Positions 19,819-55,215 of a stretch of DNA of 64,000 bases are shown here, one piece after another. The DNA comes from Luteitalea sp. TBR-22. Lineage in GTDB: Bacteria > Acidobacteriota > Vicinamibacteria > Vicinamibacterales > Vicinamibacteraceae. Both the position numbers and the translations under genes were made by a program. Location of the stretch: positions 5,602,501 through 5,666,500 of the forward strand of contig NZ_AP024452.1 in the NCBI RefSeq assembly GCF_016865485.1, written 5' to 3'. The notes under the pieces were generated by a model that did no database searches, was not told where the DNA came from, and worked only from the letters and a program-made list of their open reading frames with translations. Each line of letters opens with the position of its first letter. Within the stretch, counting starts at the first letter, position 1.

Positions 19819-20931
19819 CTACCCGGCCGCCGGCGCCTCCAGCCGGTAGGCCGCCCACACAAACCCCGCCAACTCGCGCGCCACGGCCGTGGTCGCCACC
19901 GTCGCCCGCTTGCCGCGCCGGGTCAGCGTCTGCATCTTGTGGTGCAGGCGCTCCTGCGCCCGCCACGCCAACGCGCAGGCCTCCGGGGCCTGGCCGGCGT
20001 GGCTGCGTCGCAGCCGCGCCCCCACCAGCGGTTTGAAGCGGTAGTGCCACGCGGCTTCGCTCAGCACCCGCCGTAGATGCGTATTGCCCATCTTACTGAT
20101 GCCGCCCTGCCGGCGCCGCGCGCCACTGGACCACTCCCAGCACGTCAGCCCGGTGTAGTGCATGAACGCCCGCGCCGTCGGGAAGCGACGGCCATCACCG
20201 ATCTCGGCGGCGATCATCAACGCACTCAGGCGGTCGATGCCGCGGAAGCACGTCAAGGTCTGCACCGGCGCCGCCATCGTCGCCGGCACCGGCCACGCCA
20301 GCAGCTGCGCATCGAGATCCGCCAAGCGCGCCTCGGCACTCTCCAGCGCCGCCAGGTATGTCCGGCACACCACGGCGACGCCAGGCTCCGGCCACGCCAG
20401 CGCGCGCACCCACGTCCGGTACGCGCGCGTCCACGGCTTGCTCTGCGTCCAGCGCTGCCCGTGCCGCAGCAACAGCTTGCTCACCCGGTGCCGCGTCCGT
20501 ACCACATCGCGCTGCAACTGCTGCCGCGCCCGCGTCAGCTCCCGCACCGCCTCGTCGGCCTCGGTGGGGACCGTCACCGCCGTCAGGGCGCCGTCGCGCA
20601 GATAGCGCACCAACTGGGCCGCATCGCGCCGATCCGTCTTGATGCGCTGGCGGCGGCCGCCCGCCACCTGGGGAATCAACGAGGGGGCGACCACGGTGCA
20701 GCGCACGCCCGCCGCCTGCAGGGCCCGCACCAGCGGATACCCACACGGCCCCGCCTCATACGCGACGTGCACCGGGCGCCCGGCCGCCGTCCGCACGACC
20801 CAGCGCACCAGCTTGGGCACTTCCACGGGCGCCGGACCGACGACCGGCGCCGACGCCCCGGGCGCCCACACCGCCGCCATCACCGAGGCCTGATGCACAT
20901 CCAACCCGATGAACGTCGTAGACTCCCCCAT
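19819..20931 (-). CDS. IS110-family transposase (DEDD/serine recombinase)
   Basis: A 370-residue transposase. The N-terminal RuvC-like DEDD domain shows D11 (FIGLDVH), E59 (YEAGPCGY), and D100 and D103 (KTDRRDA). The C-terminal Transposase_20 domain has the helix-hairpin-helix FRGIDRLSALMIAAEIGDG, then YTGLTCWEWSSGARRRQGGISKMGN with the expected catalytic serine. IS110 enzymes cut and join DNA under guidance of an element-encoded bridge RNA. The frame is open upstream to 21027, but ATG 20931 gives the canonical N-terminus. The gene looks intact. Confidence 0.95.
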   Translation of the reverse strand: MGESTTFIGLDVHQASVMAAVWAPGASAPVVGPAPVEVPKLVRWVVRTAAGRPVHVAYEAGPCGYPLVRALQAAGVRCTVVAPSLIPQVAGGRRQRIKTDRRDAAQLVRYLRDGALTAVTVPTEADEAVRELTRARQQLQRDVVRTRHRVSKLLLRHGQRWTQSKPWTRAYRTWVRALAWPEPGVAVVCRTYLAALESAEARLADLDAQLLAWPVPATMAAPVQTLTCFRGIDRLSALMIAAEIGDGRRFPTARAFMHYTGLTCWEWSSGARRRQGGISKMGNTHLRRVLSEAAWHYRFKPLVGARLRRSHAGQAPEACALAWRAQERLHHKMQTLTRRGKRATVATTAVARELAGFVWAAYRLEAPAAG

Positions 20932-50924: not shown

Positions 50925-51404
50925 TTACCTCGCCTGCTCGACGCAACGCGGCTGCGGCGTGGTCCCCCACAGGCCACGCGCGGCAGAGCGCGCCTCCGCC
51001 TCGGCGCGAAGCAGCAGAGGGTCGCGGCTGTACTTGCGATACACGCACGCGAGTCCGGCGCGCACCAGCGACACGCTCAGGTCGGCGCCCTCCCTCGTCA
51101 CGCGCGCCACCAGGCGCCCGTAGCGGTCGACGTCGGTTCCGCGAACGCGAACGGTGCGCCCGAACGACTCGGCCCGTGTGAACCGCGTCGCTGCCGACGA
51201 AAAGGGCTCGCCGCGCTCCGGCGTGTCGATGCCATCGAGCCGGATGCGGATCGTCGCGTGCCCACCGGCCCGGCGCACGTCGATCGTGTCGCCATCGACG
51301 ACCTTCGCCACCAGCGCGTCGAACGTCTCGCCGGGCACCTGCGCCATCGACGGCGACGGGCACACCAGTGCCGCCACCACGAGGCACCGCAGCGCCGTCT
51401 TCAC
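50925..51404 (-). CDS. secreted thermonuclease (SNase-like)
   Basis: A 159-residue protein with a signal peptide ending near PSMAQ. The SNase OB-fold core is visible: LVAKVVDGDTIDVRRAGGHATIRIRLDGIDTPERGE holds the Asp and Arg-Glu active-site signatures. VDRYGRLVARV, LSVSLVRAGLACVYRKY and AEAEARSAARGLW complete it. It cleaves DNA and RNA outside the cytoplasm with calcium. Its GTG overlaps the stop of the zinc-ribbon gene by 4 nt, so it is the last gene of the chain that begins with LOG and sigma-like proteins. Confidence 0.92.
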   Translation of the reverse strand: MKTALRCLVVAALVCPSPSMAQVPGETFDALVAKVVDGDTIDVRRAGGHATIRIRLDGIDTPERGEPFSSAATRFTRAESFGRTVRVRGTDVDRYGRLVARVTREGADLSVSLVRAGLACVYRKYSRDPLLLRAEAEARSAARGLWGTTPQPRCVEQAR

Positions 51405-51622
51405 TGGTCCTGCGCGTCGCGGGCGATCTGCCTCACCGGGTCGGGCAGCAGCCGGGTCGCGAACTTCCAGCACGTGCCGCACTCGGGGCAATCGTAGAAG
51501 TGGATGGGCATCTGCGGCATCGACACGGCCTGCGTCCGGAACGCGCCCGAGCCGACCTCGGTGTGCACATGCACGAGCGGCTCGCCGCAGTCGGGACAGT
51601 CGTGGGAAGGGATGGGAGTCAA
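51401..51622 (-). CDS. small zinc-ribbon protein
   Basis: A 73-residue protein with two CxxC knuckles, HDCPDCGEPLVHVHTE and YDCPECGTCWKF, about 37 residues apart; this is a rubredoxin-like zinc ribbon. It starts with TTG overlapping the upstream stop (TTGA) and its own stop overlaps the thermonuclease start (GTGA). It could bind nucleic acid or protein. Its function is unknown, and its place in the chain ties it to the Lon-like protein. Confidence 0.75.
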   Translation of the reverse strand: MTPIPSHDCPDCGEPLVHVHTEVGSGAFRTQAVSMPQMPIHFYDCPECGTCWKFATRLLPDPVRQIARDAQDQ

Positions 51623-53403
51623 TACGGAAAGTACCTCGCCACGTACGTCGCCGGGGTGAGGCCACCGGCGGCGCGCATGAGGTGATCGACGATGCCCGGC
51701 TGGAGCCTGCCGAGGTCGTCGAGGGCCAGTTGCGCAGCGGCATCATCCGCGGCCGCCAGCGCGTCGTCCATGCGCACGAGCGCGTGCGCCACCTGTGACG
51801 CGTGGGGATGGGTCGATCGACGGTCCTGGGCCACGGCGGCCTCGCGCGCCAGCATGCCGCGGAGCGCTGCGGCGGCCGGCGCCGCCGGGTCGGTGGCGCG
51901 CAGCCAGGCGCGCGCTGCGGCCCATCGCACGTGCTGGGGACCGGCGGCATCACCGGCCAGTCCGGCCAGCACGGCGCGCGCGGGCTCACGGTCGGGCACG
52001 CCCAGGGCCAGCGCGGCGCGCGAGCGCGCGAGGTCGATGTAGGCCTGGCCCTGGAAGCCGAACGGCCCGAGCGGCAGGATCGAGGCGAGCATCGCGTCGG
52101 CCCGCGCGAACGCGTCGTGGTCACCGGTGGCGCCTGCCAACCGGAACCACTCGGCGAGCGGAAACGAGATGTCGCGGTAGAGCAGCGCCTCGTAGTACGT
52201 GCGCGCGAGGGCCTCCTGCCGTCGGAGTGCCTCGATCGGCCGCCCCGTGACCGCGAGCAGGCGGGCGCGGGCGCCCTCGACGCGCCAGGCCATCGGGTGA
52301 CCCTCGTGCAGGTCCGGCTGCGCGAAGCGATCCAGCAGCGGCACGAGCGTGTCGGGGGCCGGCGTGCCGCTGTCGGCCGACTGCTGGACGAGGTGCGCGA
52401 GCAGATGGAGCCGCAGGTGCGCGGGCCGGGCCGCCAGCTGCGCGGGTGAGGGCACCGGCAACGAGCCGGCGTTGAACTCGTGGCGCTCGGCGATGCCGAG
52501 TGCGAACGCCAACTGGAAACGCTGATCGGCGGTGAGGTCGGGCCACTGCGCGAGGGCGCGCGAGGCCGCCGCGGCGATGGGCGACCAGTCGACGAGCTCG
52601 CCGCGCCCTTCCAGCGCGAAGCGGAAGAACCACTCGCACAGGCTGCGTCGGCGCTCTCCGTCGAGGCCTTCCTGCAGCAACAGGCCGGCCAGGCGATCTC
52701 CGAAGACGTGCTCGAGTGCCTGCGACGTGCCATGCACGCCGATCACCTCGAGAGGTCCCGCATGGCGCTCGGCGTCGCTGACCTGGGACGCCGCCACCAG
52801 CACCCGGGTGACGCTCGGCAGGAGCGCGCGTATCGTGGCGAGCTTCACATCGAGCCCGTCCACCTCTTCGACGCGCCCGTCGGCCGCCACGGCGGCGCTG
52901 GCCACGAGGTCCCCCGGCAGCGACACGCGGAACACGAGCGACGCCTGCAGGAGGAACAGCGCGAGGCCGAAGGAAGGGCCGGACACCACGTCGCACGGCG
53001 GCGCCTGCCCGGGCTCGGTGAGGTGCGCGCCGACAGGCAGGAGGTGCAGCGCGCCGGCGTGCGCGGCGTTCACCGACTGCCACAACAATGGCACCGAGCG
53101 CGGCAGCGCGAGCGACGCGGCGTCCCACGACTGGCGAGTGGTGGTGCCGACCTCCGGCCCTCGCCGTAACGCGGCGCCGGTGTGCAGGATCCACGCAAAG
53201 CCGCAGGTGCGCTCGACGCTCAGGCCGGCGATGGTGCCGATCGCCGCCGCGGGAGGCGACGGCAGTCCCGTGATGTCGCGAGCGAGGGCCGCGGCCGGCG
53301 ACGCGGCATCGGTCGGCCAGCACCAGGGGCCGATCCCGAGCACGGGGCGCAGCCGCGCGCGAGCCGCGCGGTCCGCGCGCCCGCGAACGAGTTCAGGCAG
53401 CAA
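51619..53403 (-). CDS. AAA-less Lon-type (S16) protease domain protein
   Basis: A 594-residue protein. Residues about 90-240 match the Lon proteolytic domain: VVSGPSFGLALFLLQ aligns with DGPSAG, placing the catalytic Ser at 144. DGRVEEVDGLDVKLATI aligns with the Lon GG(L/I)KEK stretch, placing the Lys at 187. The 43-residue spacing equals that of S679 and K722 in E. coli Lon. TRVLVAAS and a VHGTSQALEHVF tail also fit. No AAA+ or SAVED domain is present. Residues 260-594 are helical and repeat-like. The start is TTG, overlapping the upstream gene by 11 nt. A regulatory protease is the best guess. Confidence 0.75.
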   Translation of the reverse strand: MLPELVRGRADRAARARLRPVLGIGPWCWPTDAASPAAALARDITGLPSPPAAAIGTIAGLSVERTCGFAWILHTGAALRRGPEVGTTTRQSWDAASLALPRSVPLLWQSVNAAHAGALHLLPVGAHLTEPGQAPPCDVVSGPSFGLALFLLQASLVFRVSLPGDLVASAAVAADGRVEEVDGLDVKLATIRALLPSVTRVLVAASQVSDAERHAGPLEVIGVHGTSQALEHVFGDRLAGLLLQEGLDGERRRSLCEWFFRFALEGRGELVDWSPIAAAASRALAQWPDLTADQRFQLAFALGIAERHEFNAGSLPVPSPAQLAARPAHLRLHLLAHLVQQSADSGTPAPDTLVPLLDRFAQPDLHEGHPMAWRVEGARARLLAVTGRPIEALRRQEALARTYYEALLYRDISFPLAEWFRLAGATGDHDAFARADAMLASILPLGPFGFQGQAYIDLARSRAALALGVPDREPARAVLAGLAGDAAGPQHVRWAAARAWLRATDPAAPAAAALRGMLAREAAVAQDRRSTHPHASQVAHALVRMDDALAAADDAAAQLALDDLGRLQPGIVDHLMRAAGGLTPATYVARYFPY

Positions 53404-54454
53404 GGGCCCACCACGCGCCGGGGTCCTTCAGCCCGGCGCGCCTGAGGCGCTCGTCCTGCAGGCCCGATCCATGCGGGATGGCGAGGCCGAGCAGGAAGCC
53501 GGCGCGATCGACCTCGACGAGCGCCAGCCTGAGATCGTCGGCAGCGCTGGCAGCATCGAGCAGCACGAGCACGGCCTCGAGGTCGTCGCGCCGGTGTGCC
53601 AACGCCCTCACCTCGTCGTCCCAGCCGGGCGCCGACGCGTGGACGTCGTCCTCGACGTCCTCGATGTCCAGGCAGAGCGACGCGCACTCGGCGACGGCCT
53701 GGCGCGAGAGGGCAGCGCGGTCGTCGGCCGACAACGAGGCGGCCCAGCGACGCGGCGCGACGACGCTCGCGTCGGCACGGCCGGCGCGGACGTCAGCCAG
53801 CCAGGCGCGGGCCTCGGTTGCATCGGCAGGCGTGGCAAGACGGGCCAGCATGCCGGCGGCGACGACGTGCGTCCACGGGTCGCCCGACGTGGCCAGCGGC
53901 GCGACCTGCTCGGCGAGCCAGCCGTCCCGGCACGCCCCGGCCCACGTCTCCACCGAGGGCATGGACTGCAGTGGCGACAGGCAGGCCTCGGGTGGCGTCA
54001 CGCCGTGCACGGACACGCCGTCGTTGGTCAGGCGCAGCAGGACGGCGTCGGCGCCAGCCCGCACGATCACCGCTGCGGCACGCGCCAGGTCGACGTAGGC
54101 GGTACCCGCGTCCTCCTCGGGCACGTATTGCACCTCGTCGCGGGCGACGCCTGCCGGCACATGGACGTGCAGGTCGAGGTCGGCCGGCGCGGACAGGCGG
54201 ATCACGCCGAGGGCGGGCGAGGAGATGGCGGCATCGAGGCGGCCAAGGGTGCCGTGCCTGACGTCGGCGAAGGGCACGTCGACGAAACCGGTCGCCGCCA
54301 GGGCCGAGAAGGCCAGCGCGGCGACGTCGCCCTTCCCGAGCGCCTGACTCTGCGTGGAGGTGGCCCACTGCAGGTGCGTGCCCTCGTCGGCGAGGGTCAG
54401 TCCGGGCAGGCCGAGGAGGGCGAGGGCGTCGTGCGGGGTCGTCGTGGTCGTCAT
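53393..54454 (-). CDS. unknown protein between sigma-like factor and Lon-like protease
   Basis: A 353-residue soluble protein with no signal peptide or membrane helix. The N-terminal half (about 1-150) is probably beta-rich (LGVIRLSAPADLDLHVHVPAG, DAVLLRLTNDGVSVHGV). The C-terminal half is helical (DDRAALSRQAVAECASLCLD, DDLEAVLVLLDAASAADDLR). I do not recognise a family. It overlaps the sigma-like gene by 4 nt and the protease gene by 11 nt, so the three are made together. A role as the protease substrate or anti-sigma factor is an inference from gene order only. Confidence 0.7.
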   Translation of the reverse strand: MTTTTTPHDALALLGLPGLTLADEGTHLQWATSTQSQALGKGDVAALAFSALAATGFVDVPFADVRHGTLGRLDAAISSPALGVIRLSAPADLDLHVHVPAGVARDEVQYVPEEDAGTAYVDLARAAAVIVRAGADAVLLRLTNDGVSVHGVTPPEACLSPLQSMPSVETWAGACRDGWLAEQVAPLATSGDPWTHVVAAGMLARLATPADATEARAWLADVRAGRADASVVAPRRWAASLSADDRAALSRQAVAECASLCLDIEDVEDDVHASAPGWDDEVRALAHRRDDLEAVLVLLDAASAADDLRLALVEVDRAGFLLGLAIPHGSGLQDERLRRAGLKDPGAWWALAA

Positions 54455-55212
54455 CGCTGTTCACGCTGGGCCGCGCGGGCGGCCTCCTTGGCGCTGGACG
54501 CGCGGCGATGCAGGAAACTGACACAGCCGCGCAACCGGTCGGCTTCCTCGGCCGTGAGCCTGCCGGCGGCCGCCTCGGCGGCGATGAAGTCCGCCAGCCG
54601 GACGCGGGCCCGCTGGTGACGCTTGTGGACGGTCGCCTCGGCGGCCGCGCCGGTGCGGCCGGTGGCCTCGAGCACCACGTCGTCGATCGTCGTGGTCTTG
54701 TAGGCGAGCGCCCGCATCTGGGTGACGGCGACGACGAAATCGCGCCGCGCCTGCGGCTGCTTGAAGGTCTCCGCGCAGGCGGGCACCACCTGCTCGACGA
54801 AGCGCTGCTCGATGGCGAGGGCCTCGCGCATGAGGTCCGGCTGGGTGAGCGCCTCTTCTGCGCTCAGCGCGAGGTCGACAAGCGCGATCGGGTGATCGCC
54901 GTCGTCGATGGTGTCCTCGGCCAGCGAACGCCGTGCGCGCCAGAGCTGGACGGCCATGTGGTAGAAGGAGCGGCGCAGGAATCCGCGTACGCGCGCGTCG
55001 GAATCGCACTCGAGGGCGCCCGAGGTGCGCGAGCCGCCGTAGAGCATGTTCATGGCCGTCTCGGCGAAGGCGTCCTCCCGGATGCCGTCGTCGAACGTGA
55101 ACCTGCGTGAGAGCCGCTCGAGTTCCTCGTACACCACCTCGAAGGCGGCCGCCGCCGTGGGGTTGCCGTCGGTGTCCGGAGAGAGCGCGCGGAACGCCTC
55201 GAGCAGGGTCAT
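54451..55212 (-). CDS. ECF-like sigma factor (divergent)
   Basis: A 253-residue protein. Residues about 45-110 resemble sigma region 2 (DDGIREDAFAETAMNML, then ARVRGFLRRSFYHMAVQLWRARRS). Residues about 155-215 resemble region 4 (RRDFVVAVTQMRALAYKTTT, then TGRTGAAAEATVHKRHQRARVRLADFI, the helix-turn-helix). A 40-residue C-terminal tail is extra. It would direct RNA polymerase to a special promoter set. Similarity is weak compared with classical ECF factors. It lies 3 nt after the LOG gene and overlaps the next gene (ATGA). Confidence 0.65.
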   Translation of the reverse strand: MTLLEAFRALSPDTDGNPTAAAAFEVVYEELERLSRRFTFDDGIREDAFAETAMNMLYGGSRTSGALECDSDARVRGFLRRSFYHMAVQLWRARRSLAEDTIDDGDHPIALVDLALSAEEALTQPDLMREALAIEQRFVEQVVPACAETFKQPQARRDFVVAVTQMRALAYKTTTIDDVVLEATGRTGAAAEATVHKRHQRARVRLADFIAAEAAAGRLTAEEADRLRGCVSFLHRRASSAKEAARAAQREQR

Positions 55213-55215
55213 CGA

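What the first reader, a model, noticed from the sequence alone, without database searches (positions are those of the whole stretch)
51401..55212. Candidate new signalling/defence module: sigma-like factor, unknown protein, AAA-less Lon protease, zinc ribbon
Four consecutive minus-strand genes overlap by 4-11 nt. A divergent sigma factor, an unfamiliar 353-residue protein and a protease in that order match the logic of a protease that frees a sigma factor by cutting its inhibitor. The CRISPR-associated CalpL-CalpT-CalpS triad (SAVED-Lon protease, inhibitor, ECF-like sigma) works this way. No SAVED domain or CRISPR is visible here, so the trigger would differ. A LOG nucleotide hydrolase precedes the set and a thermonuclease follows.
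Basis: inference. Interest (0 to 1): 0.85.

Follow-up and report, generated by a model that had tools for sequence, protein, structure and literature searches.

The report
Portable protease–sigma-factor defence switch
Three genes that travel together (a transcription start factor, a protein that probably holds it in check, and a protease that probably cuts the holder) look like a portable alarm switch that soil bacteria keep near, and perhaps wire to, different antiviral defences.

Summary
LOG and zinc ribbon are bystanders: in a sister genome they adjoin, with no trio between.

Twelve trio loci turned up in 11 genomes. u353 precedes the protease in 12 of 12; sigma precedes u353 in 11 of 11 readable loci. 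Neighbours differ: type III CRISPR genes, a NACHT-like/Sel1 protein, an SMC-like ATPase, DISARM, a MADS-like set.

Five of five sister (type-2) loci carry GTCAGAC-N15-CGTC before sigma. Genome-wide, the pattern has seven further, independent sites in five genomes against one for the reversed control; two stand 42-63 bp before BREX and DruE operons.

Best reading: regulated cleavage of u353 frees sigma, which switches on defence genes. It works like CalpL-CalpT-CalpS but lacks SAVED, so it is not a member. Not shown: inhibition by u353, the cleavage, the trigger, and what the window's own, diverged sigma controls.

The parts
54451..55212 (-). Divergent ECF-type sigma factor, 253 aa
   Evidence: ORF; family profile: 6 PDB hits, all sigma factors, best E 8e-4; 4 of 8 members match Sigma70_r2, and a further member, G466, at 3.8e-7
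53393..54454 (-). u353: unknown 353-aa protein, proposed sigma inhibitor and protease substrate; predicted beta-rich N-terminal part and helical C-terminal part
   Evidence: ORF; no Pfam match, no PDB sequence match worth naming; model pLDDT 75.6; no clear fold match; directly before the protease in 12 of 12 loci
51619..53403 (-). AAA-less Lon-type protease, 594 aa (TTG start; a later start at 53343 is possible)
52690..53331 (-). Lon proteolytic domain, about residues 25-238
   Evidence: Foldseek best E 5.2e-7; VIA Z 20.5 to 6x27_C, 178 aligned, rmsd 2.5, model residues 21-246
52972..52974 (-). Catalytic Ser144 codon (GPSFG)
   Evidence: Ser in 12 of 12; aligned with the Ser of 1z0c
52843..52845 (-). 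Catalytic Lys187 codon, 43 residues after Ser144
   Evidence: Lys in 12 of 12; aligned with the Lys of 1z0c
51619..52686 (-). Helical C-terminal half (residues 240-594), proposed regulatory or sensor part, in the place of SAVED in CalpL
   Evidence: DSSP on the model: no strand after residue 225; a profile of this half (A7) matches only trio proteases, in 9 of 193 class genomes
51603..55215 (-). Approximate extent of the insert between LOG and the zinc-ribbon gene
   Evidence: site without the trio in G001 and G002; the other two sister genomes could not be read across this site

Best explanation
The trio is a portable transcriptional alarm switch. At rest u353 holds the ECF sigma. On a signal, received by the helical C-terminal half of the protease or passed on by a partner encoded next door (type III CRISPR complex, NACHT-like/Sel1 protein, SMC-like ATPase), the Lon domain becomes active and cuts u353. 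Freed sigma transcribes its own operon and defence genes, including unlinked operons such as BREX. Shown here: the three families, an intact catalytic dyad, fixed gene order, differing neighbours, insertion as a unit, and a conserved ECF-like promoter before sigma and before two defence operons in the type-2 lineage (the second copy in this genome and its sister-species counterparts). Inferred: u353 as inhibitor, its cleavage, the trigger, that the motif is read by this sigma, and that the window copy works the same way.
For: Fixed order with junctions of -11 to +78 nt in all readable loci. u353 full-length hits fall in the same 5 of 396 phylum genomes as the full-length protease. Pairwise identities of the three proteins correlate at 0.94-0.96 over 55 pairs (species relatedness not removed).

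Same-strand partners: Cas10, a Cas5-IIId-type and four Csm3/Cas7-type genes after the protease in G275, CRISPR array on the same contig; a Sel1-repeat protein with a weak NACHT match 17 nt after the protease in G097; SMC-like ATPase in the type-2 loci (gene calls in five of five; Pfam run on two).

G464 and G466 are 97.7% identical over 11.3 kb covering trio and flank, then carry MADS-like versus DISARM genes.

Promoter: GTCAGAC-N15-CGTC before sigma in 5 of 5 type-2 loci, chance 5e-5 to 6e-4 per region, not corrected for choosing the motif on these regions; a close variant before sigma in G464-G466. GTCAGACN15CGTYT: 13 sites in 5 genomes, 1 for the reversed control. Six of the 13 were known when the pattern was set (five sigma sites, one vWA site), so the fair count is 7 to 1. 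Of these 7, two lie 63 and 42 bp before the first gene of operons with BrxC, PglZ, BrxD, BrxHI and with DruE.
Against: No interaction or cleavage was tested. u353 has no recognised anti-sigma domain or fold. The motif belongs to the type-2 sigma, 23-27% identical to the window's; the window has 4 sites at up to 2 mismatches where shuffles give 10.9, none before its sigma. Of the 7 independent motif sites, three precede genes not known for defence (dnaB, a VOC protein, a lipoprotein), one precedes ARPP-1, and one lies inside a gene. The gene nearest the motif in the DruE operon matches no family. In G464 and G466 the nearest cassette genes run towards the trio, so they are not one operon. No defence cassette was recognised by eye beside the window copy or G465. 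The NACHT match is just under Pfam's cut-off. No Cas10 palm match in the own genome.
Confidence: 0.6

Rival explanations
1. The protease is the killing or disabling effector of several defence systems. u353 is its substrate or chaperone, and sigma only drives expression of the module.
For: Proteases serve as effectors in other type III and STAND systems (recalled). In G097 and G275 the trio sits next to a possible sensor and could be its effector arm.
Against: u353 lies between sigma and protease in every readable locus and no toxin-like domain was found in it. Sigma-type promoter sites stand before two unlinked defence operons, which argues for a regulatory output.
Confidence: 0.15
2. The protease destroys the sigma itself, with u353 as adaptor or shield, so the module switches defence genes off rather than on.
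For: Housekeeping Lon degrades a sigma factor, sigma-T (PMC10662116, search listing and start of abstract only). The same gene linkage would be expected.
Against: A protease without AAA+ is not expected to unfold folded proteins (general knowledge), so site-specific cutting as in CalpL is more natural.
Confidence: 0.12
3. An ordinary ECF stress regulon that merely resides in defence islands; the neighbours are hitchhikers.
For: No cassette recognised by the window copy and G465; convergent neighbours in G464 and G466; some motif sites before genes not known for defence.
Against: Same-strand placement with three unrelated cassettes, with gaps of 17 nt (G097), 126 nt (G275) and from overlap to about 715 nt by called starts (type-2 loci); motif 63 bp before BREX and 42 bp before a DruE operon.
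Confidence: 0.1

Closest known systems
CalpL-CalpT-CalpS (type III CRISPR SAVED-Lon protease, anti-sigma, ECF sigma)
   Same: Three-gene logic; N-terminal Lon domain with a second, C-terminal domain (PMC11417357, passages read); ECF sigma; one relative (G275) inside a type III CRISPR locus
   Different: C-terminal half predicted helical, no SAVED; u353 shows no detected relation to CalpT; 11 of 12 loci are not known to adjoin CRISPR genes; other neighbours are four other kinds of cassette or none; PADLOC CRISPR-Lon model only E 0.11
Csx29-Csx30-CASP-sigma (type III-E)
   Same: Defence protease that cuts a sigma inhibitor encoded with an ECF-like sigma (PMC10028731, passages read)
   Different: TPR-CHAT protease in complex with Cas7-11; here a Lon-type protease
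CapH-CapP, CapW/BrxR and CapK-CapS
   Same: Small regulators encoded beside diverse immune operons (PMC13373217, abstract and introduction read)
   Different: They act through DNA-binding repressors; here an activator (sigma) is proposed
LonA/LonB proteases
   Same: Proteolytic domain and Ser-Lys dyad 43 residues apart
   Different: No AAA+ domain found; helical C-terminal half instead

Membership tests
CalpL-CalpT-CalpS | Lon protease domain with Ser-Lys dyad | tested here: met
CalpL-CalpT-CalpS | C-terminal SAVED domain | tested here: not met
   Model (mean pLDDT 90) has no strand after residue 225, whereas SAVED is alpha/beta (recalled); no Pfam match at E up to 1
CalpL-CalpT-CalpS | Adjacent ECF sigma gene | tested here: met
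CalpL-CalpT-CalpS | Adjacent CalpT-like anti-sigma cleaved by the protease | tested here: inconclusive
   u353 has no PDB sequence match worth naming and no clear fold match; a missing match does not exclude it; cleavage cannot be tested here
CalpL-CalpT-CalpS | Encoded in a type III CRISPR locus | tested here: not met
   Window genome: no Cas10-Cmr2_palm2 match at E up to 0.001. Met in one relative, G275
Csx29-Csx30-CASP-sigma (type III-E) | TPR-CHAT protease | tested here: not met
   Protease domain has the Lon fold
Csx29-Csx30-CASP-sigma (type III-E) | Cas7-11 effector in the locus | not tested
   No scan for Cas7-11 was run on the window; none recognised by eye in the gene list
LonA/LonB protease | AAA+ ATPase domain in the same chain | tested here: not met
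   No Pfam match; residues outside the protease domain are predicted as a helical half with no room for an AAA+ fold
ECF sigma factors | Sigma region 2 detectable by profile | tested here: met
   not reached by the window protein alone
ECF sigma factors | Sigma region 4 detectable by profile | tested here: inconclusive
   No region-4 family among those listed for 8 members; a conserved basic stretch near the C-terminus was seen by eye
CapH-CapP / CapK-CapS regulators | DNA-binding repressor with protease or kinase partner | tested here: inconclusive
   No such Pfam match in the three proteins, but single-sequence scans missed even the sigma domain, so absence is weak

The most novel reading that the evidence does not exclude
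A mobile three-gene sigma/anti-sigma/protease module that is not tied to one defence system. It plugs into adaptive (type III CRISPR) and innate (NACHT-like/Sel1 protein, SMC-like ATPase) sensors, sits beside DISARM and MADS-like sets, and through its sigma controls a genome-wide defence regulon that includes unlinked BREX and DruE-type operons.
Probability: 0.42. Interest if true: 0.88.

Novelty: new variant of a known kind. Interest (0 to 1): 0.77.

Why it matters
Sigma factors released by a defence protease are described for two kinds of type III CRISPR locus. A version without the second-messenger domain, found beside several unrelated defence systems and apparently commanding unlinked BREX and DruE-type operons, would show how bacteria join separate defences into one inducible response. 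It gives concrete, testable promoters and a testable cleavage step.

Tried and rejected
Zinc ribbon, LOG and thermonuclease were considered as parts and rejected. In G001 the matched LOG and zinc-ribbon stretches are 45 nt apart and the trio is missing; in G002 the zinc ribbon follows dapE and LOG is not there. In G003 and G004 the match stops at or before the LOG end and I did not follow those contigs, so the empty site rests on 2 of 4 sister genomes. The thermonuclease part of the query has no match at that place in G001-G004; not followed.

A single-sequence protease query gave no relative in genome contigs, viral contigs or plasmids; the 7-sequence alignment gave none in viral contigs; the sigma gave none in phages. 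Its phylum was not surveyed.

One search counted 275 of 396 genomes with matches. Six loci in 5 genomes are full-length relatives; the other printed matches cover only the protease-domain columns and were dropped as ordinary Lon (judged from the printed rows; the unlisted rows were not seen). Two weak partial u353 matches (G070, G038; 2e-4 and 8e-4) lie in ORFs of 518 and 532 aa that look like trehalose-phosphate synthases by eye; dropped.

Fold search of u353 gave only weak rows (best Z 6.5), so no fold is claimed. The C-terminal half of the protease was not folded or searched alone. CalpL was not recognised in the printed rows; that proves nothing. The motif was found by eye in the regions on which its chance figures were then computed.

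Literature: eight searches in the open PMC library; only the top 1 to 25 rows of each were seen, and none described this trio. Subscription papers and bioRxiv are not held. In PMC12839542 and PMC11229360 passages were read; PMC7159879 was searched for 'Lon' and 'sigma' with no occurrence.
Full report
What is there. A codon-usage gene caller trained on neighbouring genes keeps all four, with a later protease start at 53343. Upstream on the same strand lie LOG and genes that look like a lysine-pathway cluster (by eye); downstream lies a nuclease with an SNase domain.

The sigma. No sigma family rings for the window protein alone. A profile of 8 relatives has 6 PDB hits at E up to 10, all sigma factors, 5 of them named ECF, best E 8e-4. 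Four of the 8 members reach Sigma70_r2 in Pfam at E up to 1, best 4.2e-5; of two further members, G466 matches at 3.8e-7 and G465 only at 0.076. No region-4 model rings. It is a divergent ECF-type sigma.

The protease. A profile of 8 relatives finds 47 PDB sequences at E up to 1, 46 Lon-type and one RadA, best 1.3e-6. AlphaFold2 with 9 sequences gives mean pLDDT 90.0. Model residues 21-246 match a Lon proteolytic domain: Foldseek best E 5.2e-7, VIA Z 20.5, 178 aligned, rmsd 2.5. Ser144 and Lys187, 43 apart, are kept in 12 of 12 members and align with the Lon dyad. No AAA+ domain was found. After residue 225 only helices are predicted. That half takes the place of SAVED in CalpL, which has an N-terminal Lon and a C-terminal SAVED domain (PMC11417357, passages read).

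u353. No Pfam, NCBIfam, PADLOC or PDB sequence match worth naming. The model (pLDDT 75.6) has a beta-rich N-terminal part and a helical C-terminal part and no clear fold match.

Relatives. Searches with the protease: own genome, 100 relatives (6 of 100, own genome included), 396 of the phylum (full-length in 5 of 396, two loci in the own genome), 193 of the class with the C-terminal half alone (9 of 193), 41 of the class of G275 (1 of 41), and a scan of genome contigs (one new locus). These sets overlap. Together 12 loci in 11 genomes: the window and a second copy in the own genome; G001, G002, G003, G004 (same genus); G097; G275; G464, G465, G466; and a Planctomycetota MAG (L056). I call the second copy and its G001-G004 counterparts type 2. 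u353 directly precedes the protease in 12 of 12. Sigma precedes u353 in 11 of 11; L056 begins inside u353. Junctions run from an 11-nt overlap to a 78-nt gap. u353 searched on its own over the same 396 genomes has full-length hits in exactly the same 5 genomes. Two further weak partial hits were dropped.

A unit that moves. All three window proteins are closest to those of G097 (identities 48, 39 and 40% for protease, u353 and sigma) and not to the second copy in their own genome (39, 27 and 23%); for u353 the lead is slight (G464 38%). In G001 the matched LOG and zinc-ribbon stretches lie 45 nt apart; in G002 the zinc ribbon follows dapE and LOG is missing. The other two sister contigs were not readable across the site. 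So the trio is most simply an insert of about 3.6 kb, and LOG and zinc ribbon are bystanders. G+C does not betray it (0.74 against 0.71).

Changing company. G275: a 378-aa protein with a homologue before sigma in G097 (27.7% identity, E 2e-12; DUF3800-like by eye, no Pfam match) and a helicase lie upstream. Downstream on the same strand, 126 nt after the protease, are Cas10 (PADLOC 1.8e-52, GGDD present), a Cas5-IIId-type gene (2.4e-34) and four Csm3/Cas7-type genes; the subtype III-D is suggested by the best models only. A CRISPR array with 12 regular units lies on the same contig. G097: a 1600-aa protein with Sel1 repeats (2.5e-40) and a NACHT match just under Pfam's cut-off (6.5e-6) starts 17 nt after the protease, then a helicase; RmuC-like and type-IV-restriction-like genes lie nearby. 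Type-2 loci: an ATPase gene follows in five of five gene lists. Two were scanned and match SMC_N (3e-17, 3e-15); the best PADLOC model for one is LmuB (1.3e-24). Small genes including DUF3293 follow in those two. G466 and G464 are 97.7% identical over 11.3 kb that holds the trio and one flank. Beyond a break about 355 nt after the protease stop they share no further blastn match in the fetched stretch: DISARM-type genes (DrmD E 0, DrmMI 4.5e-41, cut by the locus edge) with an Hsp70-TPR and a UvrD-like gene, against mad7-like (9.7e-56), mad8-like (7.9e-31) and SspF-like (3.7e-13) genes. There the nearest cassette genes point towards the trio, so this is neighbourhood, not an operon. Beside the window copy and G465 I recognised no cassette by eye.

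A promoter and a regulon. The regions before sigma in the five type-2 loci do not align well, yet each holds GTCAGAC-N15-CGTC with the same 15-nt spacer, 58-169 nt before the start. In first-order Markov shuffles one such site arises in 5e-5 to 6e-4 of regions; the motif was chosen on these regions, so this is not corrected for choice. G465 has GTCAGAT-N15-CGTCT, and G464 and G466 have GTCAGAT-N14-CGTC as I read the alignment. CGTC is a usual ECF -10 element (recalled). The pattern GTCAGACN15CGTYT occurs 13 times in the five whole genus genomes; the reversed control occurs once. Five sites are the sigma promoters and one (a vWA gene next to the second copy) was known when the pattern was set, which leaves 7 against 1. 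I looked at all eight non-sigma sites. Seven lie 23-70 bp before a called start: the vWA gene (a looser match also stands before its G003 counterpart); BrxC-PglY, PglZ, BrxD, BrxHI in the own genome (PADLOC E 0, 1.3e-245, 9.6e-208, 2.8e-292); an operon in G002 whose first gene matches nothing and whose next genes match DruE (4.7e-185) and DrmD (1.3e-96); ARPP-1 in G001 (1.5e-93); a dnaB-like gene and a VOC-like gene in G004 (by eye); and a lipoprotein-like gene in the own genome (by eye). The eighth lies inside a gene next to a HerA-like ATPase. So a defence regulon is likely but not clean. This concerns the type-2 sigma. The window's own sigma is 23-27% identical to it, and the motif does not stand out in the window (4 sites at up to 2 mismatches, 10.9 expected).

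How it most likely works. A signal activates the protease, directly through the helical half or through the encoded neighbour. The protease cuts u353, and sigma is freed and drives its own operon and defence genes. Families, dyad, gene order, differing neighbours, insertion and promoter motif are shown. Inhibition, cleavage, trigger and the reading of the motif by this sigma are inferred, by analogy with CalpL/CalpT/CalpS and Csx29/Csx30/CASP-sigma (PMC10028731, passages read).

Known or new. It works like those two but is a member of neither: no SAVED, no CHAT, no fixed tie to CRISPR. Regulators shared by diverse immune operons are known (CapW/BrxR, CapH-CapP, CapK-CapS; PMC13373217, abstract and introduction read) but act through repressors. 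The listings showed no description of this trio. I file it as a new variant of a known kind. The organism is an acidobacterium, judged from the record titles of the contigs that match G003 and G004; the genus name Luteitalea is my recollection from genome size and comes from no call.

Noticed in passing
L109:5090-7574: In G275, between the CRISPR array and the cas genes, a vWA-like, a kinase-like and an FHA-like gene (by eye) lie in a row; a vWA gene also lies near the second trio copy of the window's genome (L009:12051-12725, Pfam VWA).
   Followed up: partly
L109:1716-2780: A 354-aa protein that looks like a CARF-type effector by eye (no family scan run) lies near the CRISPR array of G275.
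   Followed up: no
L068:12373-12675: A 100-aa unknown protein, divergent from sigma, is also called in G464 and, with 99 aa, in G465; no Pfam match.
   Followed up: partly
window 50925-51404: A gene with an SNase domain follows the zinc ribbon; no DNA match at that place in the four sister genomes, so it may be a separate arrival.
   Followed up: no
L009:11160-11974: After the SMC-like ATPase come a 129-aa protein (weak DUF6197, under the cut-off) and a DUF3293 protein; similar genes follow in G002 (L021); role unknown.
   Followed up: partly
L053:318-2539: A gene pair downstream of the cas genes of G275 resembles a MotA-like plus OmpA-like (Zorya-like) pair by eye; Pfam gave only weak matches for the one scanned.
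   Followed up: no
window 19819-20931: An IS110-like transposase by eye; no scan run.
   Followed up: no
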